Source: a bacterium (GTDB taxonomy: Bacteria; Campylobacterota; Campylobacteria; Campylobacterales; Sulfurovaceae). Taken from it: DNA of 32,918 nucleotides. The notes beneath the pieces are model-generated. The model made no database searches. It was not told the DNA's origin and was given only the letters and a program-made list of their open reading frames with translations. The DNA lies in NCBI GenBank assembly GCA_018822805.1, contig JAHJJU010000026.1, positions 1-32,918 on the forward strand, given 5' to 3'. Shown here piece by piece: positions 10,413 to 25,210 of this stretch (position 1 is the first letter of the stretch; every line of letters starts with the position of its first letter). The translations under genes and the position numbers were made by a program.

Positions 10413-10946
10413 ATGAGAGGTCTCATTTTTACAGAATTGTTTGAACTGGTTGAGGATAGATTTGGTTATGAATTACTTGATGATATTATAGTAGAGGCAA
10501 ATTTGCCAAATGATGGGGCGTATGCATCAACAGGAAATTACCCATTTTCGGAGTTACAAACCATTATTGTGAAACTTCATGAACATACCAATATTCCTAT
10601 TGAAACCTTACTTCAAGTTTTTGGAGAGTACTTGTTTACTAAACTTTTTGAAACACATCCTCAATTTGATGGTGCTAAGCGTATTATAGATTTTTTAGAA
10701 AATGTAGAAACTTATATTCATATTGAAGTTAAAAAACTCTATCCTGATGCTGAGTTGCCCAAGTTTGATATTGTTGCTAAAGATGAAAATAGTTTTACTT
10801 TTTATTATATCTCCTCTAAGCAACTACACCATTTAGCAAAAGGATTAATTCTGGGTGCTTCAAAATATTTTAATCAACCGGTAACCATTAACATGAAAGT
10901 AGAAGAAGAAAATAAGAGAACATTGTTTTCAGTGACTCAAGTATAG
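10413..10946 (+). CDS. H-NOX haem-based gas sensor
   Basis: A 177-residue single-domain H-NOX (haem nitric oxide/oxygen binding) protein. It starts MRGLIFTELFELVEDRFG, a normal H-NOX opening. The proximal haem ligand is His103 in IHIEVKKLYPDAELP, and the conserved G-Y/A-x-S segment is GAYAST near residue 36. The haem-propionate motif, normally Tyr-x-Ser-x-Arg, reads Y132-I-S134-S-K136, so the arginine is replaced by lysine at exactly the family position. In studied bacteria such proteins bind NO, and sometimes O2 or CO, and control a neighbouring histidine kinase or cyclic-di-GMP enzyme. Here a histidine kinase gene starts nine bases after the stop, so a pair of that kind is inferred. No membrane segments are present, so it is cytoplasmic. 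The ribosome site is AAGGA. Confidence 0.9.
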   Translation: MRGLIFTELFELVEDRFGYELLDDIIVEANLPNDGAYASTGNYPFSELQTIIVKLHEHTNIPIETLLQVFGEYLFTKLFETHPQFDGAKRIIDFLENVETYIHIEVKKLYPDAELPKFDIVAKDENSFTFYYISSKQLHHLAKGLILGASKYFNQPVTINMKVEEENKRTLFSVTQV

Positions 10947-10955
10947 GTTTATTTA

Positions 10956-12233
10956 ATGGATGACGAAAGAGTTAAACGTATTATCAATCGTGAAAGAGCT
11001 GCAAGAAAAGAGTCTGAGAGACTTTTGGAAAGTAAAAGTAGTGAACTTTATGAGATTAATCAGAACTTAGAAAAATTGGTTTTAGAACGTACCAATAAAC
11101 TCTCTAATGCTCTAAAAGAAGCTGAATTGGCGATGAAAGTTAAAGATGAATTTTTATCCAATATGTCGCATGAAATACGTACACCTTTGAATGCCATTAT
11201 TGGGTTTGTGCAAATTATGATGAAAAGCACTTATAATGAAAAATCTTTTTTTAAACATTTAAGCATTGTGAACAGCAGTAGTAAAAATCTTTTGCAAATT
11301 ATTAATGATATTTTAGATTTTTCAAAACTGCAGAGTGGAAAGTTTACGATTTCATTGGTCAATATTGATTTAAAAGCAAAGTTAGAGCATACCTTTAGCC
11401 TCTTTTCTCAGGAAGCAGAGGCAAAATCTCTTTATTATGAGTTGTTTTTTAGCGATGATTTTCCTAAATATTTGTTGGTTGATGAGACAAGAATTGTGCA
11501 GATTTTATCCAACTTTATTTCTAATGCTATTAAGTTTACACCAGTAGGTAAAGTAATATTGGTTAATGTGGGCTATGATCATAAAACAAGTAAGTTAAAG
11601 ATAGAAGTACAAGATACCGGAATTGGAATTGATGAGGAGGCAAAAGCTAAAATCTTTAACAGTTTTGAACAAGAAGATGCTTCAGTTACGAGAAAATTTG
11701 GAGGGACAGGTTTAGGTTTGGCAATCTCCAAACAGCTTATAGAGTTGATGGATGGAACGATAATTTTTGAAAGTACTAAAGGGAGTGGAAGTACCTTTGG
11801 TTTTGAAATGAGTGTTGAGACGGGAGGAGATGTAGAAGTGATTGAAGAGAAGTCAAAAGAAGAAGAACACGGATATAAAGGTAAAGTTTTAATTGCTGAA
11901 GATAATGAGATGAGTGCTATTTTAATGGAAACACTTATGGAAGGTTTTGAGGTTGAATTTGAAATTGTTGCTGATGGAGAACTCGCTGTTGAAGCTGTAA
12001 AGTCCAATGATTATGCTTTCGTTTTTATGGACAATCAAATGCCTAAACTTTCAGGAATTGAAGCAACTAAATGTATACGAACATTTAATACCGATATTCC
12101 CATTGTGGCACTTTCAGCCAATGCTTTAAAAACTGAACAAGAAGAGTTTTTAAGTGCAGGAATGAATGATACCCTTTCAAAGCCTGTTAATCAAGAGGAC
12201 TTAAAATTGATGCTGGACAAGTATTTGAAATAA
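10956..12233 (+). CDS. Hybrid histidine kinase partnered with H-NOX
   Basis: A 425-residue soluble hybrid kinase. Residues 1-60 form a charged coiled coil (RERAARKESERLLESKSSELYE) with no sensor domain or membrane span. The HisKA domain follows, with phospho-acceptor His72 in SHEIRTPLNAIIG. The ATPase domain has N-box SNFISNAIKFTP, G1 DTGIGID and G2 GGTGLGLAI. A C-terminal receiver domain has the acidic pair in IAEDN, phospho-acceptor Asp359 in FMDNQMP and the conserved Lys in LSKPV. The gene follows H-NOX with a 9-base gap, so input very likely comes from that protein. This matches the known HahK/HqsK-style arrangement. No output regulator or Hpt gene lies next to it, so phosphate must pass to a partner elsewhere. 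Confidence 0.92.
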   Translation: MDDERVKRIINRERAARKESERLLESKSSELYEINQNLEKLVLERTNKLSNALKEAELAMKVKDEFLSNMSHEIRTPLNAIIGFVQIMMKSTYNEKSFFKHLSIVNSSSKNLLQIINDILDFSKLQSGKFTISLVNIDLKAKLEHTFSLFSQEAEAKSLYYELFFSDDFPKYLLVDETRIVQILSNFISNAIKFTPVGKVILVNVGYDHKTSKLKIEVQDTGIGIDEEAKAKIFNSFEQEDASVTRKFGGTGLGLAISKQLIELMDGTIIFESTKGSGSTFGFEMSVETGGDVEVIEEKSKEEEHGYKGKVLIAEDNEMSAILMETLMEGFEVEFEIVADGELAVEAVKSNDYAFVFMDNQMPKLSGIEATKCIRTFNTDIPIVALSANALKTEQEEFLSAGMNDTLSKPVNQEDLKLMLDKYLK

Positions 12234-12357: not shown

Positions 12358-15300
12358 TCACTGTGCCATAATCGAACTAAGTAGACGAATATACGCAGAT
12401 TGATACATTAACTGAGGTTCACTCATTTCATAAGAGTCATAATCAGAAGCATATGCTTTAAGTGGTGGTTGATTTGAAACATTTTCACTATAAATCATTG
12501 CATTGCCACTATAACTATCAATTGCACCACCTACTAGGAATCCTGATGCCACTTCCATCCCTTCAATAAACCAGGCATGATGCATTTGGTCTACTGATTT
12601 TTCTGAACCATAAGCATTCATATTTGAAAGGTAAACCAAATTTTGAGGATTTACACCATGTAAATAGTGTAAATATCCTACAGATGCTTTGAGGTATTTT
12701 TGATGATTGGTACTGTCCATATCATAACTTAACATATTCATGAGCATATTCCCACTTGAACCAACTGCTTGATTTGAACCCCATGGGTAAGCATCTAAAA
12801 ATGCAAAATATGGGTTTGTCTCATTGTCGTACTCTTTGAGTGGAGCAAAATCTACCCATTGATTGGTTTGTGCAAAGGTATAGTTCTTTTTTATTGCTTC
12901 TGCAAATGTACTCTCTGCTCCTGCTAGTGTGGTATAAAAGAGCTGTGCATCATGCGAACGCAACTTTGTACCACTTGAGTTAAAATAGGCTTTATCTTTA
13001 TCATTTAAGTTCGCATGGTTAATTAATTGTCCATCTATTGCATTGGTTTCATAATAGTTCTTATACGTCACATTATTGGTTAATGCATAAAGGTAAATTG
13101 CAGCTACAATTTTATTTGTTTTTTGAATGGCTATACTGTCTTCGGCTTCTGCTGTACCAAAACCATTATTACTATAGTTTGAATAGGCTTTTCCTTCTAA
13201 ATAATTCCATCCTTCAACAGCTGCATCTTTAAGCTTCTGTGTAAAATTATTATCAATAGACTCATAAATAATAGCAGCATGTGCCAACATTCCTACAGCT
13301 GAGATGGTTGCTGAAACGGTTGGTGGTGCATAATAGCGTGCATCGGTATTAGAGCTTGGTGGAGATTCATTTCCCTGACCAAAGTGTAGTGCTGATGCTT
13401 TATGTAGAAATGAACCTCTATCAGCTGCAGTAAATGTAGGGTTCGAACCATCTACATCATCACTGTTTACCTGCATTTTTAAAACCCATTCCAATTCATA
13501 ACGCAACTCATCTAAAATATCCGGTACTCCATTACCCGATTCCGGAATAGTATAATCATCTCCCCAAAATGTTGGGTGCATTGTATACGCTATTAATAGA
13601 TCATGTACAATTTCATCTGTATAATTAATATATTTATTATAATCACCGGCATCAAACCATCCTCCAGAGACATCTTTTTGTGTTGCCGGATTTGTTTTAT
13701 CTAAAATTGATGTTGCTATTTCATCTTGTGGAAATGCTTTACCATCAATAAAAGGTTCTTCTACATAGGGAGCAATTTTAGCAAAGTTTGACCGTTGCAG
13801 ATAGAGCATTCGTACACTCTGTTTTAAGACATCATCGTAAACTGTTGAAGCTATTTGAAATGGATAGGAGGATTGTTTATTATCTTTGTCGTAAATATAA
13901 TACTCTCCTTCTTCCTCAAAAGCACTAAAGTCATAATGCCACAGTTGATCTCCTGAGCTGCTATGTGTTGCCCCATTTTTCCATGATGTTACAACACCTC
14001 CGTTCCATGCTACTGTATTGTCTGAAACTCGACGAATTTCATAATTGTTTGATGGAATAAAAGTCTCTCCGGTATTAAATCCCTCTATTGGATTGGAGAG
14101 TACAGCTATTTTGGTTGATTTTGGTAGGTAGCCAAACTGATCTACTTTTATCGGATTGATGGTGTAGAGTATCTTTACCTCATTTTCTCTATAAGCATGA
14201 AAAAGTGTTCCACTACTCCCCTTAACCCAATATCCATACCCATTTAGTAGGGTATCAAGATTTGAATAGTTAGCCCCATCACCGGTATAAATAGTTTGCC
14301 CATTTTGAGCTTGTATTTCGTGGTAAGCACTCATATCAATATCTTCTTTTGAAGTATCCTGACATGTAGCCATTAGATTCCAACCATCTCTAAGTAATGG
14401 TTTACTCAGATTACTATCTGTTTTTTTACCATCAAAAAGAGCTCCTGCCTCACCTTTGACCCAATAGGCATAACCTGCTTCTAAAACAACCAAATTTGAA
14501 TAGTTACTATACTCGCCTGTATAGATACTCAATCCATCTTGATTTTGTATCTCTTCGATACCACTCATATTGATATCAATGGCGTAGATATCTTGACAAA
14601 CAGACATAAGATTCCAGCCTGTTCGTTGCAATGGCTTAAAATTACTGCTATTGGCATCATTGTTTAAACTCTGAAAGAATGCTTTCAGTTCAACATTGAC
14701 ATCTAATTCATCGACTTGAAAGCCATTCCAATTGCCATAAAGTCCAAATGAACTGCCATGATAATCAAAATAAAAACTGTTTATCTTTGTACCATATGAA
14801 TTGTCTCCATCAAAAATAGCGTAGGTGTCAGAGGTTAACTCTAATGCTCCAACATCATGGTCAAAAGTCTCAATAACCGAACCAAACTCTCCGATATTGA
14901 CGGGGACATTATGCGTGTTTGTAAACTCTAAAATCTCATCAACATAGAGCTGTTGTAACCAAGCTTTATTAAATGGTTTACTATTGGTCGGTGGGGTTCC
15001 ACCATCTTCAGGAGTCCAAACAACATCCCAATTTCCATCAATATAAAGAGGATTACTGTTACTGTAAGCTCCCCATCGTTTTCCATCTTTTCCATAGTGT
15101 GCAGAGTATTGAATAGAGTACCCCCATATTGCATAAGAGTGTGTGTCATACATAACATTGGTATCATTAACGGTTCTCATGGTATAGCCATTGATAAAGG
15201 GGGTTTGTAGATTAATCATATGGTTACTATCTTTGGTTCTTATTTTGGCAATCAGTTGTTCTGCATACGCTAACCACTCTTCACTGTTGTTGGGTCGTGG

Positions 15301-16356
15301 CTCATTTATTAAATCATAGGCTAAAATAATTGGTTCATGTTTATACCTATCGGCAATGGCACCCCAAAGGTTGATTAATCTATCTTGATTAGAAGTATTG
15401 GGTGCTGTACCTAAACCATCCCAAAATTTTGAAGTTCCTTGAACATCATCACTCTGATACCCACCTTGTGGTGTGTGCATATCCAATAGTAGATAAACCC
15501 CTGTCTCTTTAGCATAAGCAATGGCTCTATCCAGCCAGTGCCATCCATCTTTTCTGTATTGACCGATATTGTTGTCATCTTCAAATATTTTATAGTTTAA
15601 GTGCAGGCGAATAGCATTAAAACCCATACGTTTAATATTTTTAAAATCTTTTAATGAGACAGATTTTACATCCCAAATATCTTCAACCGTATTGTCATCG
15701 TCTGCCGGAACAGTAACATTCATTCCTTTAAAAAGAATGGGTCTATTACTTGCACCTACGACAAGGTTCTTTCCATTGGCTCGAATAAACATATTGGGAT
15801 TACTGCTATTTGGTGGCGTATAATCCTCTAACTCTCCTAAAAAAAAATCATCACTATAAAAGTCAAATGTTTCACCTGAAGCACTAGTCACATAAAAATT
15901 TAAATTCTGTAAAGAGCTGTCACTTTTCAAAACAAAATGTTTTACAATCTCTACCCACTGATTAGGAGGGACAACTTCATCTTCAAGTTTTTGATACTCC
16001 GTTCCGGCACCATCTACCTGTTTAATATTGAGTAGTAGTCTTTTAGTGGTTGCTTCACTATGATAGACCCAAACCGAAGCTGTATAACGTTCCCCACTAA
16101 CTAAAGAACCATTTTCAACCAATGGTTTAATATCGGTACTTGGTCCATGATAAAACTGGGTTCTATTTCTGTTTAAAAAACTGTAAGATCCTGAATGTGC
16201 TTGAAGTGTTGAGCTTTCAACTGCCGGTCCACCTCCAAAAGTTGTCCATGAACTGGTATTTCCCTCCTCGGCTCCTGGATTCGCAATAAAGTTATTTTGA
16301 GCATTACCAAATGAGATGCTTAAGAATATCAATACTAAAATGATACGTTTATTCAT
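12358..16356 (-). CDS. Secreted GH5-GH9 two-domain cellulase
   Basis: A 1332-residue multidomain glycoside hydrolase. In order: a signal peptide (1-19, cut after GNA); a carbohydrate-binding beta-sandwich of the CBM4/9 kind (about 22-175, FIANPGAEEG); and a GH5 domain (about 190-565) with acid/base Glu352 in LINEPRP and nucleophile Glu490 in NIGEFGS. Two 78-residue repeats follow, centred on GWNLM (Trp581, Trp659), each ending in YWVKG. Then come the Ig-like CelD-N module (about 738-830, VDQFGYLP) and a GH9 domain (about 840-1330) with GGWFDAGDYNKY (Asp902, Asp905) and catalytic Glu1313 in YEMSEPQL. All catalytic residues I can place are present. It should act outside the cell on beta-1,4-glucans such as cellulose. 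The start has AAGGGAG upstream. It is monocistronic, with no transporter or beta-glucosidase nearby. Such an enzyme is unexpected in Campylobacterota and suggests horizontal transfer. Confidence 0.93.
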   Translation of the reverse strand: MNKRIILVLIFLSISFGNAQNNFIANPGAEEGNTSSWTTFGGGPAVESSTLQAHSGSYSFLNRNRTQFYHGPSTDIKPLVENGSLVSGERYTASVWVYHSEATTKRLLLNIKQVDGAGTEYQKLEDEVVPPNQWVEIVKHFVLKSDSSLQNLNFYVTSASGETFDFYSDDFFLGELEDYTPPNSSNPNMFIRANGKNLVVGASNRPILFKGMNVTVPADDDNTVEDIWDVKSVSLKDFKNIKRMGFNAIRLHLNYKIFEDDNNIGQYRKDGWHWLDRAIAYAKETGVYLLLDMHTPQGGYQSDDVQGTSKFWDGLGTAPNTSNQDRLINLWGAIADRYKHEPIILAYDLINEPRPNNSEEWLAYAEQLIAKIRTKDSNHMINLQTPFINGYTMRTVNDTNVMYDTHSYAIWGYSIQYSAHYGKDGKRWGAYSNSNPLYIDGNWDVVWTPEDGGTPPTNSKPFNKAWLQQLYVDEILEFTNTHNVPVNIGEFGSVIETFDHDVGALELTSDTYAIFDGDNSYGTKINSFYFDYHGSSFGLYGNWNGFQVDELDVNVELKAFFQSLNNDANSSNFKPLQRTGWNLMSVCQDIYAIDINMSGIEEIQNQDGLSIYTGEYSNYSNLVVLEAGYAYWVKGEAGALFDGKKTDSNLSKPLLRDGWNLMATCQDTSKEDIDMSAYHEIQAQNGQTIYTGDGANYSNLDTLLNGYGYWVKGSSGTLFHAYRENEVKILYTINPIKVDQFGYLPKSTKIAVLSNPIEGFNTGETFIPSNNYEIRRVSDNTVAWNGGVVTSWKNGATHSSSGDQLWHYDFSAFEEEGEYYIYDKDNKQSSYPFQIASTVYDDVLKQSVRMLYLQRSNFAKIAPYVEEPFIDGKAFPQDEIATSILDKTNPATQKDVSGGWFDAGDYNKYINYTDEIVHDLLIAYTMHPTFWGDDYTIPESGNGVPDILDELRYELEWVLKMQVNSDDVDGSNPTFTAADRGSFLHKASALHFGQGNESPPSSNTDARYYAPPTVSATISAVGMLAHAAIIYESIDNNFTQKLKDAAVEGWNYLEGKAYSNYSNNGFGTAEAEDSIAIQKTNKIVAAIYLYALTNNVTYKNYYETNAIDGQLINHANLNDKDKAYFNSSGTKLRSHDAQLFYTTLAGAESTFAEAIKKNYTFAQTNQWVDFAPLKEYDNETNPYFAFLDAYPWGSNQAVGSSGNMLMNMLSYDMDSTNHQKYLKASVGYLHYLHGVNPQNLVYLSNMNAYGSEKSVDQMHHAWFIEGMEVASGFLVGGAIDSYSGNAMIYSENVSNQPPLKAYASDYDSYEMSEPQLMYQSAYIRLLSSIMAQ
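14160..14640 (-). repeat. Two tandem 78-residue protein repeats in the cellulase linker
   Basis: Between the GH5 and GH9 domains two consecutive modules share GWNLM(S/A)(V/T)CQD near the start, a central IYTG(E/D) and a Y(A/G)YWVKG near the end. The tryptophans of the GWNLM motifs are at residues 581 and 659, so the period is 78 residues. Each has one Cys in CQD. I do not recognise the fold; a carbohydrate-binding or spacer role is possible. Confidence 0.75.
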
Positions 16357-17268: not shown

Positions 17269-17859
17269 ATGCAGATAAACTTAAAGAATTTATCCACCAT
17301 TAAAACAGGTTTAGTCTTATCAAGAAAGAAAGCTTCTCAACAGGCTAAGTTTAAAAAAAAATATAATGTAATCTCTCTTAAGTCCTTTTATGAAAATGGT
17401 TACTATGACCACGCATTAGCTGATGAGTTCATAGCAAATGAAGAGATTAAAGATGAGAACCTTTTACAAAAAGGGGATATCTTAATACGACTTAGAGAAC
17501 CGAATATAGCTGTCTATATTGATGAAGAGTACAAAGATACCATTATCTCATCATTGGCAGCTGTGGTTAGGGTTACGCACAAAGATATCAATCCACAATT
17601 TTTAGTGGACTATCTGAATTCATCACGTGTAAAGAGACAACTCTATAGCCAAGGTACTGCTGTATCGATGCTCAATGTAAAATTTATTGGAGAACTAGAG
17701 ATATTTGTGCCTTCTTTAGATATTCAAAATAGAATGGCTCAAATTCAAGCTCTCTCTCATAAAGAGATAAATCTTTTAAACCGGTTAATAGCAGCAAAAA
17801 AAGAGTACAACAAAAGTATATTTGAAACGTTAATCAATAAGGAAATAAAAAATGACTAA
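17269..17859 (+). CDS. Half-size type I specificity subunit (HsdS-like)
   Basis: A 196-residue protein resembling one half of a type I restriction HsdS: one target-recognition domain (about residues 1-150, with the typical KGDILIRLREPNI and VVRVTHKDINPQFLVDYLNS) and one helical conserved region (about 155-196, VPSLDIQNRMAQI, then a coiled helix). A full HsdS has two of each and about 400 residues. The ORF is complete: AAAGGGGG precedes its ATG, and its 3' end overlaps hsdM by eight bases, so it is not a decayed full-length gene. Half subunits can dimerise to recognise a palindromic or repeated half-site. This one may pair with itself, compete with the full HsdS encoded 2.9 kb downstream, or regulate. 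Its helical part is quite unlike that HsdS. Confidence 0.82.
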   Translation: MQINLKNLSTIKTGLVLSRKKASQQAKFKKKYNVISLKSFYENGYYDHALADEFIANEEIKDENLLQKGDILIRLREPNIAVYIDEEYKDTIISSLAAVVRVTHKDINPQFLVDYLNSSRVKRQLYSQGTAVSMLNVKFIGELEIFVPSLDIQNRMAQIQALSHKEINLLNRLIAAKKEYNKSIFETLINKEIKND

Positions 17860-19342
17860 AACAACACAAGAGACAATTAACAGCATCGTATGGAAAGCAT
17901 GTGATACCTTTAGAGTAACGATGAGCAGTAATGATTATAAAGATTATGTCTTAACAATGTTGTTTGTTAAATATCTATCAGATTTTTATAAAGAAAAACT
18001 AGAACTGTTAACGGTTAAGTATGGTAATAATGAAGAGAGAATTCAAAAAAGTTTAAAAAGAGAGAAGTTTAAACTTGATGAGAAATGTACGTTTGACTAT
18101 ATTTTACAACATAAAGAGGCAGAGAATTTAGGTGAAGTGATAGATAAGGTTTTAGAGCGAATCGAAGAGGACAACAAAGAGAAACTTGATGGGGTATTTA
18201 GAGAGATCAGTTTTAACAGTGAAGCCGTTTTTGGAAGAACCAAAGAGAAAAACAAAATCTTAAGAAATCTACTTGAAGACTTTAGCGATACACGACTCGA
18301 CTTAAGACCCTCTAGGTTAGAGGGAAATGATGTTATTGGTGATAGTTATGAGTATCTTATTGCCCATTTTGCAAGTGATGCAGGTAAAAAAGGTGGGGAG
18401 TTTTTTACGCCAAGTGCTGTTTCGACACTGCTCTCAAAACTGGTCGAAGCCAAAGAGGGTGAGCGAATCTATGACCCAACTTGTGGTTCAGGTTCACTCC
18501 TTATTAAAGCCAGTATAGAGGTAGGTAATAGTAACTTTAGAATCTATGGTCAAGAGAGTAAAAGTGCTACTGTAGCTCTTTGTAAAATGAATATGTTTTT
18601 GCATGATATTAATGATGCCGTCATAGAGTGGGGAGACACCATCAACAATCCACTACATTTAGAAAATGACCACTTAATGAAGTTCGATGTGGTGGTGGCA
18701 AACCCTCCATTTTCACTCGACAAATGGGGAGCTGAAGAGGCAACAACAGACAAATACAAAAGATTTGAAAGGGGAATCCCTCCTAAAAGTAAAGGAGATT
18801 ATGCCTTTGTTTCGCATATGGTAGCCAGTTTGAATGAGCATGGTCGTATGGGTGTGGTTTTGCCTCATGGTGTACTTTTTCGTGGAGCTGGTGAAGCCAA
18901 AATACGAAAGCAACTGATAGAAGATGACAATTTACTTGATGCTGTTATTGGGTTACCTACGAATCTGTTTTTTGGTACGTCTATTCCTGCTTGTATTTTG
19001 GTCTTTAAAAAACAACGAGAGAGTAAAGATGTTCTTTTTATTGATGCGAGTCGTGAGTTTAACAAAGATAAAAATCAAAACAGTATAGATGAGATACATA
19101 TAGAAAAAATACTTGATGTTTATAAAGGCAAAAAAGAGATAGAGAAGTATTCACATCTTGCGACATTGGAAGAGATACAAGAGAATGAGTACAATTTAAA
19201 TATACCAAGATATGTCGATACTTTTGAAGAAGAAGCTCCTGTAGATATGGATGCTACTAAGGAAAACATCGCCAAGATAGAGCGTGAGCTAGTAGAGGTT
19301 AAGGCTCAAATGAGTGCGTATTTAAAAGAGCTAGGTTTATAG
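17852..19342 (+). CDS. hsdM: Type I restriction-modification methyltransferase subunit
   Basis: A 496-residue N6-adenine DNA methyltransferase of the HsdM family. The N-terminal helical domain (about 1-150, SIVWKACDTFR, LTMLFVKYLSDFY) contacts HsdS. The catalytic domain has the AdoMet motif DPTCGSGS at 208-215 and the adenine-binding NPPF at 284-287. KGGEFFTPSAVS at about 180-191 is the conserved segment before motif I. With HsdS it methylates the recognition site; with HsdR added it forms the restriction complex. The start overlaps the half-HsdS gene by eight bases, and one base separates its stop from the next gene, showing co-translation. Length is normal and no defects are seen. Confidence 0.96.
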   Translation: MTKTTQETINSIVWKACDTFRVTMSSNDYKDYVLTMLFVKYLSDFYKEKLELLTVKYGNNEERIQKSLKREKFKLDEKCTFDYILQHKEAENLGEVIDKVLERIEEDNKEKLDGVFREISFNSEAVFGRTKEKNKILRNLLEDFSDTRLDLRPSRLEGNDVIGDSYEYLIAHFASDAGKKGGEFFTPSAVSTLLSKLVEAKEGERIYDPTCGSGSLLIKASIEVGNSNFRIYGQESKSATVALCKMNMFLHDINDAVIEWGDTINNPLHLENDHLMKFDVVVANPPFSLDKWGAEEATTDKYKRFERGIPPKSKGDYAFVSHMVASLNEHGRMGVVLPHGVLFRGAGEAKIRKQLIEDDNLLDAVIGLPTNLFFGTSIPACILVFKKQRESKDVLFIDASREFNKDKNQNSIDEIHIEKILDVYKGKKEIEKYSHLATLEEIQENEYNLNIPRYVDTFEEEAPVDMDATKENIAKIERELVEVKAQMSAYLKELGL

Positions 19343-19343
19343 C

Positions 19344-20195
19344 ATGAATACAGTAATTTATGATAATGGTGAATTAGATATAAAGATATCTGTAGAAGAT
19401 AATACCATTTGGCTTACACAAAAACAGATAGTTGAAATTTTTGACTCTAGTAAATCTAATATCAGTGAGCATATAAAGTCAATCTATCAAAGTAACGAGT
19501 TAGACAAACTTTCAACTGTTCGGAAATTCCGAACAGTTCAAAAAGAAGGAAATAGAGAAGTTCAAAGGGAGAGGGAGCATTATAATTTGGATATGATAAT
19601 TTCCATAGGCTATAGAGTAAACTCATTAAAAGCAACTAAATTTAGACAATGGGCAACCTCTATACTAAAAAGCTATATCTCTGATAGATATGTTATTAAT
19701 TTTGAAAAGATTACTCATCAAAGATTTAAAGAGCTCGAAAATGATGTATCATTTTTGAAAGAGAAAGTAGGAAACATATCAAATCAAATAGAAAATAAAT
19801 CTATTAAACAGTCCCAAGGAATATTTTTTGATGGAGAGGTATATGATGCTTATGCTTTTATCAGTAATCTAATTAGAAGTGCAAAAAAAAGCATAATAGT
19901 TGTAGATAACTATATTGATGATACTATTCTTACACTTTTTAGTAAAAATAGTGAAGTTAAAATCTCGATTTATACTAAAACCATAACAAAACAGCTTGAG
20001 CTAGACAGTAAAAAATATAATGCCCAATATAAAAACTTAGAAATTAAAAAGTTTAATCTCTCTCATGATAGATTTTTAATAATTGATGATGAAATTTATC
20101 ACATAGGTGCTAGTTTAAAAGATTTGGGTAAAAAATGGTTTGCTTTTAGTAAAATGGACAAAGGTAGTGTTGCCATCATGGAGAGACTAAAATGA
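19344..20195 (+). CDS. RhuM-like DNA-binding / phospholipase-D-like fusion protein
   Basis: A 283-residue two-part protein. Residues 1-115 match the RhuM virulence-protein family (IWLTQKQIVEIFDSS, YNLDMIISIGYRVNS, KFRQWATSIL), a winged-helix-like region probably binding DNA. Residues 120-155 are a helical linker. Residues 160-283 resemble a phospholipase D-like domain with a single motif H241-D-R243-F-L-I-I-D248, a His-x-Lys-x4-Asp motif in which Lys is Arg. PLD enzymes need two motifs, so this part would have to dimerise, or it may be a non-catalytic binding domain. It lies between hsdM and hsdS with a 1-base gap and a 4-base overlap, so it is made with the restriction enzyme. RhuM genes inside type I loci are known, but their job is not. 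A 25-base palindrome lies within the gene. Confidence 0.75.
   Translation: MNTVIYDNGELDIKISVEDNTIWLTQKQIVEIFDSSKSNISEHIKSIYQSNELDKLSTVRKFRTVQKEGNREVQREREHYNLDMIISIGYRVNSLKATKFRQWATSILKSYISDRYVINFEKITHQRFKELENDVSFLKEKVGNISNQIENKSIKQSQGIFFDGEVYDAYAFISNLIRSAKKSIIVVDNYIDDTILTLFSKNSEVKISIYTKTITKQLELDSKKYNAQYKNLEIKKFNLSHDRFLIIDDEIYHIGASLKDLGKKWFAFSKMDKGSVAIMERLK
19514..19538. repeat. 25-base palindrome inside the RhuM-like gene
   Basis: Two perfect 12-bp arms (AACTGTTCGGAA / TTCCGAACAGTT) around one central base. It encodes STVRKFRTV, so the protein itself reads almost as a mirror. It could be a binding site, an mRNA hairpin or a relic of an inserted palindromic element. Confidence 0.9.
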
Positions 20196-21427
20196 GTCAA
20201 GTTAAGCTGGGCTATAAGCAGACCAAAATTGGTGTTATTCCCGAGGATTGGGAGGTTGTAAGAAGTGATAAAGTACTACAACGAATCCGAAAAAAAGTCA
20301 ATGTTCAAAAAGATGAGAAATATCAACAAATAGGTATACGCTCTCATGCAAAAGGGTTGTTTCATAAAGAGCTTGTTACGGGTGAAACATTGGGAAATAA
20401 ATCGGTATTTTGGATAGAAGAGGATTGTTTTATAGTTAACATTGTGTTTGCTTGGGAACAGGCTGTTGCCAAAACAACGCATAAAGAAAGGGGGATGATA
20501 GCTTCTCATAGATTTCCTATGTATCAAGCAAAAGATAATAGAGTCGATATTGATTATTTGCTCTATTTTTTCAAATCAAAAAGAGGAAAACACCTTTTAG
20601 GATTGGCTTCTCCTGGTGGTGCAGGACGAAATAAAACCTTGGGTCAAGGTGAATTTAATGAGCTTAAACTACCATTACCTCCTTTAAAAGAACAACAAAA
20701 AATAGCCAAAATCCTAACCACATGGGACAATGCCATAGAAAAACAAGAGCAACTTATAGACCAAAAAGAATTCTTGAAAAAAGGGTTGATGCAGAGACTT
20801 TTGAGTGGAAAGATTAGATTAAATGAATTTGATAGTGAATGGAAAGAAGTTCGATTAGAAAGTATAACAATCAAAATGCAATCAGGTGGAACACCTAAAG
20901 CAACAAATAAAAATTATTATTCAGGAAATATCCCATTTGTTAAGGTAAAAGATATTACAAAAAATGGAAAGTATCTAATATCTACAAAAGTATCAATTAC
21001 AAAAGAAGCATTAAATAGTTCTTCTGCATGGTTAGTGCCTTTCAACAGCTTAATTTACTCAATGTATGCTTCGATAGGATTTGTAAGTATAAATAAAATT
21101 GAATTAGCAACAAGTCAAGCAATGATTAATATCATACCAAATACTAAAATAGTTGATTTAGAATATTTATACTACTATTTATTTGATTTGAAGAAATATA
21201 TCAATAAATATATTGAGACAGGAACACAAGGTAACTTAAATGCTCAGATTGTGAAAAGTTTAAAAATTAAACTCCCACCACTCCAAGAACAACAAAAAAT
21301 AGCTAACATTCTAACCCTAGCAGACAAAGAGATAGATTTATTAAAAGATGAATTATCTCAACTAAAAAAACAAAAAAAAGCTTTAATGCAAAAGCTACTA
21401 ACGGGGGAAGTGAGGGTAGCTGTATGA
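20192..21427 (+). CDS. hsdS: Type I restriction-modification specificity subunit
   Basis: A 411-residue full-length HsdS that selects the bipartite DNA target for HsdM and HsdR. It starts with the usual YKQTKIGVIPEDWE. The layout is first target-recognition domain (about 15-155), first conserved helical region with LPLPPLKEQQKIAKIL (about 160-205), second recognition domain (about 213-355) and second conserved region with LPPLQEQQKIANIL (about 361-411). The two conserved regions form the coiled-coil spacer that fixes the distance between half-sites. A 30-base in-frame direct repeat encodes the EQQKIA cores (27/30 identical). The ATG overlaps the preceding stop as ATGA, and its own stop overlaps hsdR the same way. 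The recognised sequence cannot be read from the protein. Confidence 0.95.
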   Translation: MSQVKLGYKQTKIGVIPEDWEVVRSDKVLQRIRKKVNVQKDEKYQQIGIRSHAKGLFHKELVTGETLGNKSVFWIEEDCFIVNIVFAWEQAVAKTTHKERGMIASHRFPMYQAKDNRVDIDYLLYFFKSKRGKHLLGLASPGGAGRNKTLGQGEFNELKLPLPPLKEQQKIAKILTTWDNAIEKQEQLIDQKEFLKKGLMQRLLSGKIRLNEFDSEWKEVRLESITIKMQSGGTPKATNKNYYSGNIPFVKVKDITKNGKYLISTKVSITKEALNSSSAWLVPFNSLIYSMYASIGFVSINKIELATSQAMINIIPNTKIVDLEYLYYYLFDLKKYINKYIETGTQGNLNAQIVKSLKIKLPPLQEQQKIANILTLADKEIDLLKDELSQLKKQKKALMQKLLTGEVRVAV

Positions 21428-24400
21428 ACCCAACCATTAGCAACGAAACCACCATCCAACAAAACACCATTAATCTACTCCAAGAAATGGGTTACACCTT
21501 TGTAAGTAGAGACGAAAATGCTCAAGAGAGAAAAGGAAAGTTGAGTACTGTACTCTTTAAAGACATTCTTGTAAAACAACTTCAAGAATTAAATAGCTTT
21601 GAGTATAAGGGGATAAATTATCCATTTTCATCAAAAAGCATTAGTAGTGCCATAGATGATTTGGATGAGTCTTTACAAGAGGGGCTTATGACAGCCAATG
21701 CTAGAGTAACCGATCAGCTTGTACTGGGGAATGCTTATCAAGAAGAGCTGGTGGATGGGGCTAAAAAAAGTTTTTCGTTTAAGTACATTGATTTTGAAAT
21801 ACCTAGCAATAATGTTTTTCACTTTACAGAAGAGTTTAGCGTTTTAAGAGCAATTCAAAATGAGCATGAAAAAACAAGAAGACCCGATATGGTTCTGTTT
21901 ATTAACGGCATTCCTTTTGGGGTGATAGAGCTAAAAAAATCAAGTGTTAACACCGAGCAAGGCATCTCTCAGATGATACGAAATCAGCTCAAAGGTGAAA
22001 TAAGGGAACTCTTTAAATATGTACAGATAACCCTAGCAGGAAACAACCATTCGCCACAGTACGCTACCACAGGAACCCCTAAAAAATTTTATGCGACTTG
22101 GGAAGAGGATGTAACAAAACCTTTAGAAGCATTGGTGACTAAACGAACAGTAAGTAAATTAGACCGTACACTCTATTCACTCTTTAACAAAAAGAGAGTT
22201 TTAGAGCTTCTGTACTCCTTTATACTCTTTGATAACAAGATGAAAAAAATAGCACGTTACCAACAGTTTTTTGCCATTAAAGAGATAGTTAAAAAGATAG
22301 AAAAGCTAGACAAGCGAGGTCGCAGGGGTGGTGGGCTTATTTGGCATACACAAGGGAGTGGAAAGTCACTTACCATGGTGATGCTAACGCGTGTGATTAA
22401 AAGAGAGATACTCAATGCAAAAGTCATTGTGGTAACTGACAGAAAAGATTTGGACAGACAGATACATGATACCTTTCAAAACAGTGAGATAGAAGCCAAG
22501 AGAGCAAAAAGTGGTAAAGACCTGATAAAGCTTCTGCAAAGTGGTAAAAGTGTTATTACCACACTGATTCATAAGTTTGAAACCGTTGCTAAAGAGAAAG
22601 TGGTGCTGAATGACCCCAATATCTTTATATTGGTTGATGAGTCACATCGTACCCAAGGAGGGAATTTAAACAGAGCCATGAAAAAAGTTTTTCCTAGCTC
22701 TTGTTACTTAGGGTTTACGGGTACGCCTCTTATGAAAAAAGAGAAAAATACCATCTCTAAATTTGAAGGACTGTTGCATAAATACACCATTGACCAAGCT
22801 GTAAAAGATGGTGCTGTACTACCTCTTCTTTATGAGGGAAGATTGGTTGAGCAGTGGGTCAATGATGAAAAAGGTTTAGAGAGACGTTTTGATATTATTT
22901 CAAGAGATTTAAATAAAGAGCAAAAGAGAGACCTTGCTAAAAAATGGGTACGCTTTCAAAAATTGGCTTCAAGTGAACAGAGGCTTGAGCTGATTATGTT
23001 AGACATAGAGAGTCACTTTGTAAAAAATATAAAAGAGACTGGATTTAAAGCGATGTTGGCGACGAGTAGCAAGTATGAAGCGATTAAATATCATAAACTT
23101 TTTGAAGAGCTTGGCAATGTAAAGAGTGCTTTTGTTATATCTGCTCCTGATAACAGAGAAGGTCATGAGAGTATTGACGATGATAATAAGACCTTTATTA
23201 ATGAAGCATGGACAAAAATCATCAAACAGTATGGTGATGAAGAACGCTATTTAGAAAAGATAAAAGATGAGTTTATTGAGGGGGATGAGTTGGAGCTGTT
23301 AATCGTGGTTGATAAACTCTTAACAGGATTTGACGCACCACGAGCAACGGTACTCTATATTGACAAAGAGTTAAAAGAGCATAACTTACTTCAAGCCATT
23401 GCTAGGGTTAACAGACTTTATGATGGTAAAGATTTTGGGTTTATTATTGACTACAGAGGTTTGTTAGGTAATCTTGATAGTGCTTTAACTTCATATGCTT
23501 CTCTTGATGGTTTTGATGAAGAAGATTTAGTAGGAGCTGTTGTTGACATTAGAGATGAGATAGCCAAACTCAAAACGTTCTATTCGCATTTGGAAGAGTT
23601 ATTTAAAGAGGTTAAAAATAGAGATGACCAAGAGAGCTATGAGGTATTTTTAGCTGATGAAGAGAAAAGAAAAGTTTTTTATGAGTATCTTTTTAACTAC
23701 GCAAGGGCATTAAAACTTTCCCTCTCTTCCGATAAAATCAATGAAGTTTTTTCAGAAGAGGAGATTGCAAACTATAGAGAAAAGATGAAGTTTTATGCTG
23801 ATTTGAGAGCCAGTATAAAGATTCGTTACCATGAGTCGGTTGACTTTGGTAAATATGAAAAACAGATGCAAAAACTACTCGATACTTTTATTAGTGCTGA
23901 TGATGTGAATCAATTGACAAAGTTAGTGAACATTTTTGATGAAGACTTCGATAGTGAAATAGAGCGAGTAGTAGGGGAAAATGCACGAGCCGATAGCATC
24001 TTAAGTGCAACGACGGCAGTTATTAACGAAAAAATGGAGTCAAATCCTGCCTATTATGAAAAATTAGCCAAACGCATTCAAGAGATACTTGAAGCCTATA
24101 AAGAGAATCGACTTTCAGAAGAGGAGAAACTGAAAGAGGCTAAGGATATAAGAAATCTATTAATCTCTCAACAGAGTAATGAAGCGAACAACTACCCTGA
24201 CGAAATTAAAAATAATGCTTATGCGATTGCTTTTTATGATAATATTGGTCACGATTTAAATGAAGCCATCAATAATAACCAACACGCCACTATGGTAGCT
24301 GAAGAGAGACCAAGTTATGGTAAAGTGAATAAAGAAGAAGATGTCGTTGTCAAAACAGTGATGCAACTCAATGCAATATTTAAAGAGGTCTCTAAAAAAC

Positions 24401-24555
24401 CAGACTGGGTAAACAACAGTGATGTGACCAATCAAATAGAAGGTCAAATCGAAGAGATATTGTGGGATTTAGAAGATGACTATAATATTAAATTTAAAAA
24501 TATGGATGAATTGGTAGGAAAGGTAAGGAGTATTGGAATCAATAACTACGCATAA
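21424..24555 (+). CDS. hsdR: Type I restriction endonuclease subunit
   Basis: A 1043-residue motor and nuclease subunit. The N-terminal PD-(D/E)XK nuclease has Asp155 (RRPDMVLF) and Glu169/Lys171 (VIELKK). A superfamily 2 helicase core follows: Walker A QGSGKS (Lys314), DESH box (Asp405-His408), motif III GFTGTPL, motif V region LLTGFDAP and motif VI QAIARVNR. A long helical C-terminal domain (about 680-1043) should dock onto the methyltransferase. It cleaves unmethylated foreign DNA after ATP-driven translocation. All key residues are present, so the enzyme looks active. It overlaps hsdS by four bases, and the next gene starts inside its last 23 bases. Confidence 0.97.
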   Translation: MNPTISNETTIQQNTINLLQEMGYTFVSRDENAQERKGKLSTVLFKDILVKQLQELNSFEYKGINYPFSSKSISSAIDDLDESLQEGLMTANARVTDQLVLGNAYQEELVDGAKKSFSFKYIDFEIPSNNVFHFTEEFSVLRAIQNEHEKTRRPDMVLFINGIPFGVIELKKSSVNTEQGISQMIRNQLKGEIRELFKYVQITLAGNNHSPQYATTGTPKKFYATWEEDVTKPLEALVTKRTVSKLDRTLYSLFNKKRVLELLYSFILFDNKMKKIARYQQFFAIKEIVKKIEKLDKRGRRGGGLIWHTQGSGKSLTMVMLTRVIKREILNAKVIVVTDRKDLDRQIHDTFQNSEIEAKRAKSGKDLIKLLQSGKSVITTLIHKFETVAKEKVVLNDPNIFILVDESHRTQGGNLNRAMKKVFPSSCYLGFTGTPLMKKEKNTISKFEGLLHKYTIDQAVKDGAVLPLLYEGRLVEQWVNDEKGLERRFDIISRDLNKEQKRDLAKKWVRFQKLASSEQRLELIMLDIESHFVKNIKETGFKAMLATSSKYEAIKYHKLFEELGNVKSAFVISAPDNREGHESIDDDNKTFINEAWTKIIKQYGDEERYLEKIKDEFIEGDELELLIVVDKLLTGFDAPRATVLYIDKELKEHNLLQAIARVNRLYDGKDFGFIIDYRGLLGNLDSALTSYASLDGFDEEDLVGAVVDIRDEIAKLKTFYSHLEELFKEVKNRDDQESYEVFLADEEKRKVFYEYLFNYARALKLSLSSDKINEVFSEEEIANYREKMKFYADLRASIKIRYHESVDFGKYEKQMQKLLDTFISADDVNQLTKLVNIFDEDFDSEIERVVGENARADSILSATTAVINEKMESNPAYYEKLAKRIQEILEAYKENRLSEEEKLKEAKDIRNLLISQQSNEANNYPDEIKNNAYAIAFYDNIGHDLNEAINNNQHATMVAEERPSYGKVNKEEDVVVKTVMQLNAIFKEVSKKPDWVNNSDVTNQIEGQIEEILWDLEDDYNIKFKNMDELVGKVRSIGINNYA

Positions 24556-25210
24556 TGTCAAGATTATAAGAAAAGAGATTAAAAATATTACTTTGAAAGT
24601 AAAGCCAAGTTGTGAAGTTATTTTATCGGTGCCTTTAGATACAGATGATATATATATTCGTTATATTTTAGAGAAAAGAAAAAGTTGGATAGCCCAAAAA
24701 GTTAGTTTTTTTGAAGCCAGTAATAAAATAGAAATAAAAGAGTATGTGAGTGGAGAGAGCTTTAAATATTTGGGTAAAAACTATAGATTAAAAGTGATTG
24801 AATCTAAGGAAGAGCAAGTAAAGTTACTTAGAGGCTATATTCAAGTTTTTGTTAAAGACAAAACAAATTTAAAAAAGAAACAGAAGCTTTTAGAAGCGTG
24901 GTACATGAGAAAAGCAGAAAACTATTTTCAAAAAATTGTTAAAGCGTATTTACCCATGGTTCAACAAGAGGTTAAAACCATAAGAGTAAGAGAGATGAAA
25001 ACCAGATGGGGATCATGTAACCCTGTAAAAGGGTATATTAATCTGAATAGTAAGCTTATTAAAAAGTCAAAAGCTTCCATAGAGTATGTGGTTTTTCATG
25101 AGTTAACACATTTGGTTCACCCCAATCATGGTAAAGCGTTTTATAACTATTTGGATACTTATATGCCTGATTGGAAAAAAAGAAAAGCCATACTTGATGC
25201 CAATTCATAG
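24533..25210 (+). CDS. YgjP-like zinc metallopeptidase
   Basis: A 225-residue protein of the YgjP/DUF45 (PF01863 type) metal-dependent hydrolase family. The N-terminal half is a beta-rich region (IRKEIKNITLKVKPS...VILSVP). The C-terminal half has the family signature KTRWGSC and the zinc site H189-E-L-T-H193, with a third ligand His199 (PNHGKAF). The most plausible start is TTG 24533: AAGGAG ends only two bases before it, so initiation may depend on hsdR translation reaching its stop at 24555. No in-frame ATG lies nearby. YgjP homologues often accompany type I restriction genes, but what they cut or bind is not established. A role in turnover or maturation of the restriction complex is a guess. 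Confidence 0.88.
   Translation: MESITTHNVKIIRKEIKNITLKVKPSCEVILSVPLDTDDIYIRYILEKRKSWIAQKVSFFEASNKIEIKEYVSGESFKYLGKNYRLKVIESKEEQVKLLRGYIQVFVKDKTNLKKKQKLLEAWYMRKAENYFQKIVKAYLPMVQQEVKTIRVREMKTRWGSCNPVKGYINLNSKLIKKSKASIEYVVFHELTHLVHPNHGKAFYNYLDTYMPDWKKRKAILDANS

What the first reader, a model, noticed from the sequence alone, without database searches (positions are those of the whole stretch)
12358..16356. GH5 and GH9 cellulase domains fused in one secreted protein of a probable Campylobacterota member
Both catalytic domains keep their key residues (E352/E490; D902/D905/E1313), with a CBM, a signal peptide and spacer repeats. Two-domain endo/processive cellulases are known from specialised cellulose degraders, while this phylum is mostly lithotrophic or host-associated. 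No sugar uptake or beta-glucosidase gene is adjacent, so the purpose may be biofilm or host-polymer remodelling rather than feeding.
Basis: partly seen in the sequence, partly recalled or inferred. Interest (0 to 1): 0.6.

Follow-up and report, generated by a model that had tools for sequence, protein, structure and literature searches.

The report
Two cellulases fused in sulfur-bacteria relative
A bacterium of a mostly sulfur- or hydrogen-eating group makes one large secreted protein with two different cellulose-cutting enzymes, and a distant relative built the same kind of protein with the two halves in the opposite order, which suggests that the pairing was put together twice.

Summary
Window 12358-16356 (-) encodes 1332 aa: signal peptide, CBM4_9, GH5, a tandem pair of ~75-aa repeats (called WNL here), CelD_N Ig domain, GH9; the named catalytic residues are present. 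The genome is in the order of a record titled Campylobacterales. The two-enzyme protein is rare there: no other copy found in 175 genomes of its family or a sample of 397 of its phylum. Each half has a close single-enzyme relative: CBM4-GH5 in a congener (70%), GH9 in the same genome (69%). A second Campylobacterales genome (L028) carries the same two blocks in opposite order (WNL-CelD_N-GH9-CBM4-GH5). Trees put each fusion's GH5 next to a single-enzyme GH5 of its own genus and separate the GH9 halves, so two independent fusions are most likely. In the window the repeat pair, normally right behind a signal peptide, sits mid-protein, marking the joint. The genome holds four GH9 genes and no GH1, GH3 or GH94 hit, so feeding through the usual beta-glucosidases looks unlikely; no true cellulose synthase was found either. 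GH9 relatives are in Bacteroidota and Gammaproteobacteria, pointing to horizontal transfer. The enzyme class is known; the convergent, order-swapped assembly is the new part. Activity is untested.

The parts
12358..16356 (-). Whole ORF, 1332 aa, CBM4_9-GH5-WNL-WNL-CelD_N-GH9
16300..16356 (-). Probable signal peptide (aa 1-19, MNKRIILVLIFLSISFGNA)
   Evidence: read from the sequence; no predictor run
15883..16296 (-). CBM_4_9 carbohydrate-binding domain (aa 21-158)
   Evidence: E 2e-18
14875..15735 (-). GH5 catalytic domain (aa 208-494; acid/base E352, nucleophile E490)
14407..14631 (-). WNL repeat 1 (aa 576-650)
14173..14397 (-). WNL repeat 2 (aa 654-728)
13891..14157 (-). CelD_N, N-terminal Ig-like domain of GH9 enzymes (aa 734-822)
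   Evidence: E 7e-13
12382..13839 (-). GH9 catalytic domain (aa 840-1325; D902, D905, E1313)

Best explanation
It is a secreted two-enzyme beta-1,4-glucanase made by joining two once separate secreted proteins end to end: a CBM4-GH5 enzyme and a WNL-CelD_N-GH9 enzyme. The GH5 half would cut inside amorphous glucan chains while held by its CBM4, and the GH9 half, tethered by the repeat pair, would cut the same fibre nearby, so that the two act in synergy. The blocks came into these lineages piecemeal, probably by horizontal transfer, and were joined independently in two families of Campylobacterales in opposite orders. Most likely use: cutting cellulose-like glucans of other organisms in mats and sediments (sheaths, algal or plant debris, biofilm matrix) to get in, spread or release short oligosaccharides, rather than full saccharification by this cell. 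Shown: domain make-up, catalytic residues, order-swapped relative, tree positions, missing GH1/GH3/GH94. Inferred: secretion, activity, substrate, synergy, purpose.
For: Single-enzyme relatives of each half: CBM4-GH5 in congener G171 (70%), GH9 on contig C66 of the same genome (69%). Reverse-order fusion L028. GH5 tree: window with G171 (100/100), L028 with G613 of its own genus (99/97); window and L028 as sisters rejected (p-AU 4e-98), also with their two single-enzyme relatives (4e-46). GH9 tree: window with C66 (100/100), L028 with gammaproteobacterial rows (95/91); window and L028 as sisters rejected (1e-68). The repeat pair lies directly behind a signal peptide in the seven other own-genome proteins read and in L028, but mid-protein in the window. 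The closest solved GH5 is endoglucanase CelC, the closest GH9 are endoglucanases 3x17 and CelD. No GH3, GH1, GH94.
Against: The sister-group tests show that single-enzyme genes stand nearer to each fusion, but one ancient fusion followed by repeated splitting and reordering is not formally excluded. The weaker test, GH9 of window+C66+L028 as one group, is not rejected (p 0.098 and 0.053). GH5 is a family of many specificities. Codon use gives no clear sign of recent arrival. Draft genomes can hide copies.
Confidence: 0.65

Rival explanations
1. A feeding enzyme: the organism is mixotrophic, cuts cellulose outside the cell and takes up cello-oligosaccharides, splitting them with enzymes of families not searched here.
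For: Four GH9 genes plus a GH5, CBM2 and CBM4 modules in one genome look like a cellulolytic set; a GH2-like gene (my reading of the sequence) lies on C50; Sulfurovum was abundant on rice straw in a coastal enrichment (PMC10469889).
Against: No GH1, GH3 or GH94 in a 99.8% complete genome; no uptake system beside the gene.
Confidence: 0.2
2. Remodelling of the cell's own glucan matrix: the enzymes trim an exopolysaccharide made by the cell.
For: A GT2 synthase locus with glycoside-hydrolase-like and acyltransferase-like partners exists on C50.
Against: The GT2 scores 76 bits against a cut-off of 699 for cellulose synthase CelA, so the polymer need not be cellulose; several CBM-bearing enzymes are more than trimming needs; no link between C50 and the window gene was found.
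Confidence: 0.15
3. A single fusion in an ancestor of the two families, later reordered in one line (through tandem duplication and loss) and split into single genes several times.
For: All six campylobacterotal GH5 as one group is not rejected (p 0.077); GH9 of window, C66 and L028 as one group is not rejected.
Against: Each fusion's GH5 is sister to a single-enzyme GH5 of its own genus; opposite block order; needs several splits.
Confidence: 0.12

Closest known systems
CbCel9B/Man5A of Caldicellulosiruptor bescii (GH9, three CBM3, GH5)
   Same: GH9 and GH5 catalytic domains in one secreted polypeptide (PMC4892530, PMC4928363).
   Different: There GH9 is N-terminal, the modules between are CBM3 and the GH5 is a mannanase; here GH5 comes first, the joint is the WNL pair plus CelD_N, the CBM is CBM4_9, and the GH5 is nearest to CelC.
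L028 protein of Campylobacterales bacterium ZodW_Metabat.179
   Same: The same blocks: WNL pair, CelD_N-GH9, CBM4-GH5.
   Different: Opposite order; GH9 39% and GH5 36% identical; different nearest relatives of each half.
Clostridium thermocellum CelD (1clc) and metagenomic endoglucanase 3x17, GH9 with N-terminal Ig domain
   Same: CelD_N-GH9 arrangement and catalytic residues.
   Different: No GH5 fused, no WNL; no dockerin was found in the window protein.
Clostridium thermocellum CelC (1cec), GH5 endoglucanase
   Same: Closest solved GH5 by profile (E 1e-31).
   Different: CelC is matched over the GH5 part only; CBM4 and GH9 are additional here.

Membership tests
GH5 (Pfam PF00150) | Profile match above the curated cut-off | tested here: met
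   92.2 bits against 23.5
GH5 (Pfam PF00150) | Two catalytic glutamates (NEP motif and EFG motif) | tested here: met
   E352 and E490, invariant in A3
GH5 (Pfam PF00150) | Endo-beta-1,4-glucanase activity | not testable with these tools
   The family has many specificities; nearest solved relative is CelC
GH9 (Pfam PF00759) | Profile match above the curated cut-off over the full model | tested here: met
   153 bits against 27.7, model 1-443 of 444
GH9 (Pfam PF00759) | DAGD aspartates and C-terminal catalytic glutamate | tested here: met
   D902, D905, E1313; the residue before the glutamate is Ser, recalled as Asn in most GH9
Processive GH9 endoglucanases of the GH9-CBM3c type | CBM3c fused behind GH9 | tested here: not met
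   No CBM3 in Pfam scan; CelD_N precedes GH9
Cellulosomal enzymes | Dockerin domain | tested here: not met
   No dockerin in Pfam scan
Multi-catalytic modular cellulases (CelA-like, Cel9B/Man5A-like) | Two catalytic GH domains plus CBM in one secreted polypeptide | tested here: met
   secretion inferred from the N-terminus only
Multi-catalytic modular cellulases (CelA-like, Cel9B/Man5A-like) | Synergy between the catalytic domains | not testable with these tools
   needs enzyme assays
Any described family for the WNL repeat | Match in Pfam-A or PDB | tested here: not met
   Only sub-threshold hits; low-confidence fold, pLDDT 49

The most novel reading that the evidence does not exclude
In lithotrophic Campylobacterales an N-terminal repeat module of this group works as a targeting or surface-binding adaptor onto which borrowed cellulase blocks are plugged repeatedly and in either order, giving a secreted glucan-cutting arsenal without the usual beta-glucosidases, used against neighbours' glucan sheaths or matrix and not for feeding.
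Probability: 0.25. Interest if true: 0.65.

Novelty: new variant of a known kind. Interest (0 to 1): 0.45.

Why it matters
If right, it shows the same two-enzyme cellulase assembled twice, in opposite orders, in a phylum known for lithotrophs and host-associated species, which is a natural test of whether domain order matters in multi-catalytic cellulases. It also marks a lineage with several secreted cellulases and none of the three usual beta-glucosidase or cellobiose-phosphorylase families searched, which raises the testable question of what it cuts and for whom. The repeat module, without a described family, offers a handle on how these bacteria place secreted enzymes.

Tried and rejected
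Assembly chimera: rejected as unlikely, longest exact match to other held stretches of the genome 20 nt. Contamination of the bin: unlikely, since the contig carries dnaE, icd and efp and both halves have relatives in a congener or on another contig, but the core genes were not placed by a tree. Recent foreign origin by composition: GC 0.365 and codon distance within the range of core genes, no signal. Cellulose synthase partner: none at the curated score. Structure of one WNL repeat from four sequences and of GH5 from two sequences: both low confidence (pLDDT 49.5 and 49.6), so no fold search was made. Literature: no paper on cellulases of this lineage was found in the held library.

Full report
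Check of the observation. The ORF, the two catalytic domains, the CBM, the Ig-like CelD_N domain and the named residues are all present. The order from the N-terminus is signal peptide (by eye), CBM4_9, GH5, two ~75-aa repeats, CelD_N, GH9. The neighbours are dnaE, a monomeric isocitrate dehydrogenase, a VWA protein, a haem-NO-binding protein with a hybrid histidine kinase, a LysE-type exporter, a type I restriction-modification system, a symporter, EF-P and an HtrA protease; none belongs to sugar uptake or breakdown.

Where it comes from. The window is a complete contig (C14) of a 2.79 Mb genome in 121 contigs, 99.8% complete. The genome is in the same order as genome G640, whose contig holds the L028 sequence letter for letter over the 1 kb compared; L028's record is titled Campylobacterales bacterium isolate ZodW_Metabat.179.

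How rare. With the whole protein as query, 6 of 175 genomes of the family match anything at E 1e-10, several of them only the repeats; 3 of 397 in the phylum; 4 of 228 in the second family. None but the window and G640/L028 has both enzymes in one ORF. With the GH9 profile, 15 of 175 family genomes have a GH9, so GH9 as such is thinly spread in the family, mostly of another type with CBM2.

Two fusions in opposite order. L028 encodes 1269 aa: signal peptide, repeat pair, CelD_N (190-277), GH9 (296-782), CBM4_9 (801-925), GH5 (975-1236). These are the same blocks, GH9 block first. Single-enzyme versions exist for the parts: CBM4-GH5 in G171 (Pfam), GH5 genes with the matching N-terminal region in G232 and G600, and repeat-CBM4-GH5 in G613; CBM2-CBM2-CelD_N-GH9 on C66. 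In the GH5 tree the window pairs with G171 and L028 with G613, each well supported; window plus L028 as sisters is rejected, also when the two single-enzyme relatives are added. In the GH9 tree the window pairs with C66, and L028 falls with a Thiotrichales MAG and a sulfidic-cave MAG titled Dichelobacter nodosus. Window, C66 and L028 as one GH9 group is not firmly rejected. The simplest account is two separate fusions. The clade test only shows that single genes lie nearer; repeated splitting is the costlier alternative.

The joint. The repeat pair (profile) is found in nine places of this genome and in 11 of 397 phylum genomes. In the seven other own-genome proteins that I read, and in L028, it starts directly behind the signal peptide; in the window it starts at residue 576. 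Exceptions exist elsewhere (C-terminal in L159, L162, L165). None of the GH9 loci from outside the phylum showed it. I read the mid-protein pair as the former N-terminus of a secreted GH9 enzyme whose signal peptide was lost on fusion. Its function is unknown: no Pfam or PDB match, no confident model.

Horizontal transfer. The nearest GH9 outside the phylum are Bacteroidota and Gammaproteobacteria; the five-row clade with the window stands beside Saprospiraceae and Chitinophagales rows. The genome of the Thiotrichales MAG also holds the best GH5 found outside the phylum, 41%, and a Thiothrix fructosivorans plasmid has a GH5 relative at 29%. Thiothrix-type bacteria share sulfidic springs with Campylobacterota (PMC10811913, PMC9319827). 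Direction and date of transfer are not shown, and codon use gives no hint.

What it does. Activity on beta-1,4-glucan is inferred from the families and the closest structures, CelC for GH5 and CelD/3x17 for GH9. The absence of GH3, GH1 and GH94 from the genome weakens the feeding account; the absence of a true cellulose synthase weakens the own-matrix account. Attack on, or passage through, other organisms' glucans is the remaining favourite, by elimination and not by direct evidence. Glucan-type sheaths of Thiothrix would be a candidate; that chemistry is recalled and was not found in the library.

Verdict.

Noticed in passing
L015:7576-13326 (own genome C25); also L122:98-5947 (G150): A 1916-aa protein joins the repeat pair, a GH9, CBM2, fn3, cytochrome c domains and PSD/PSCyt domains (DUF1587, 1595, 1592, 1588), followed by a DUF1552 gene and a flavocytochrome c sulfide dehydrogenase-like flavoprotein gene: a cellulase fused to redox domains. 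A CBM2-DUF1592 protein is listed from Cellvibrio (PMC6004670); no plasmid record covers the whole protein.
   Followed up: partly
L121:7534-12984 (own genome C117); relative L126:7216-12645 (G172): An 1817-aa protein with the repeat pair, CelD_N and GH9, plus a C-terminal stretch with SNEVWN and YEGGQ motifs that may be a second glycoside hydrolase domain without a Pfam match.
   Followed up: partly
L017 (own genome C12): Four secreted proteins with the repeat pair at the N-terminus lie within 14 kb, with different C-terminal parts.
   Followed up: partly
10413-12233: A haem-NO-binding (H-NOX type) gene and a hybrid histidine kinase stand tail to tail with the fusion gene.
   Followed up: no
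17269-25210: A type I restriction-modification system with hsdM, hsdS, hsdR, a RhuM-like gene and a second, short specificity-type ORF in front.
   Followed up: no
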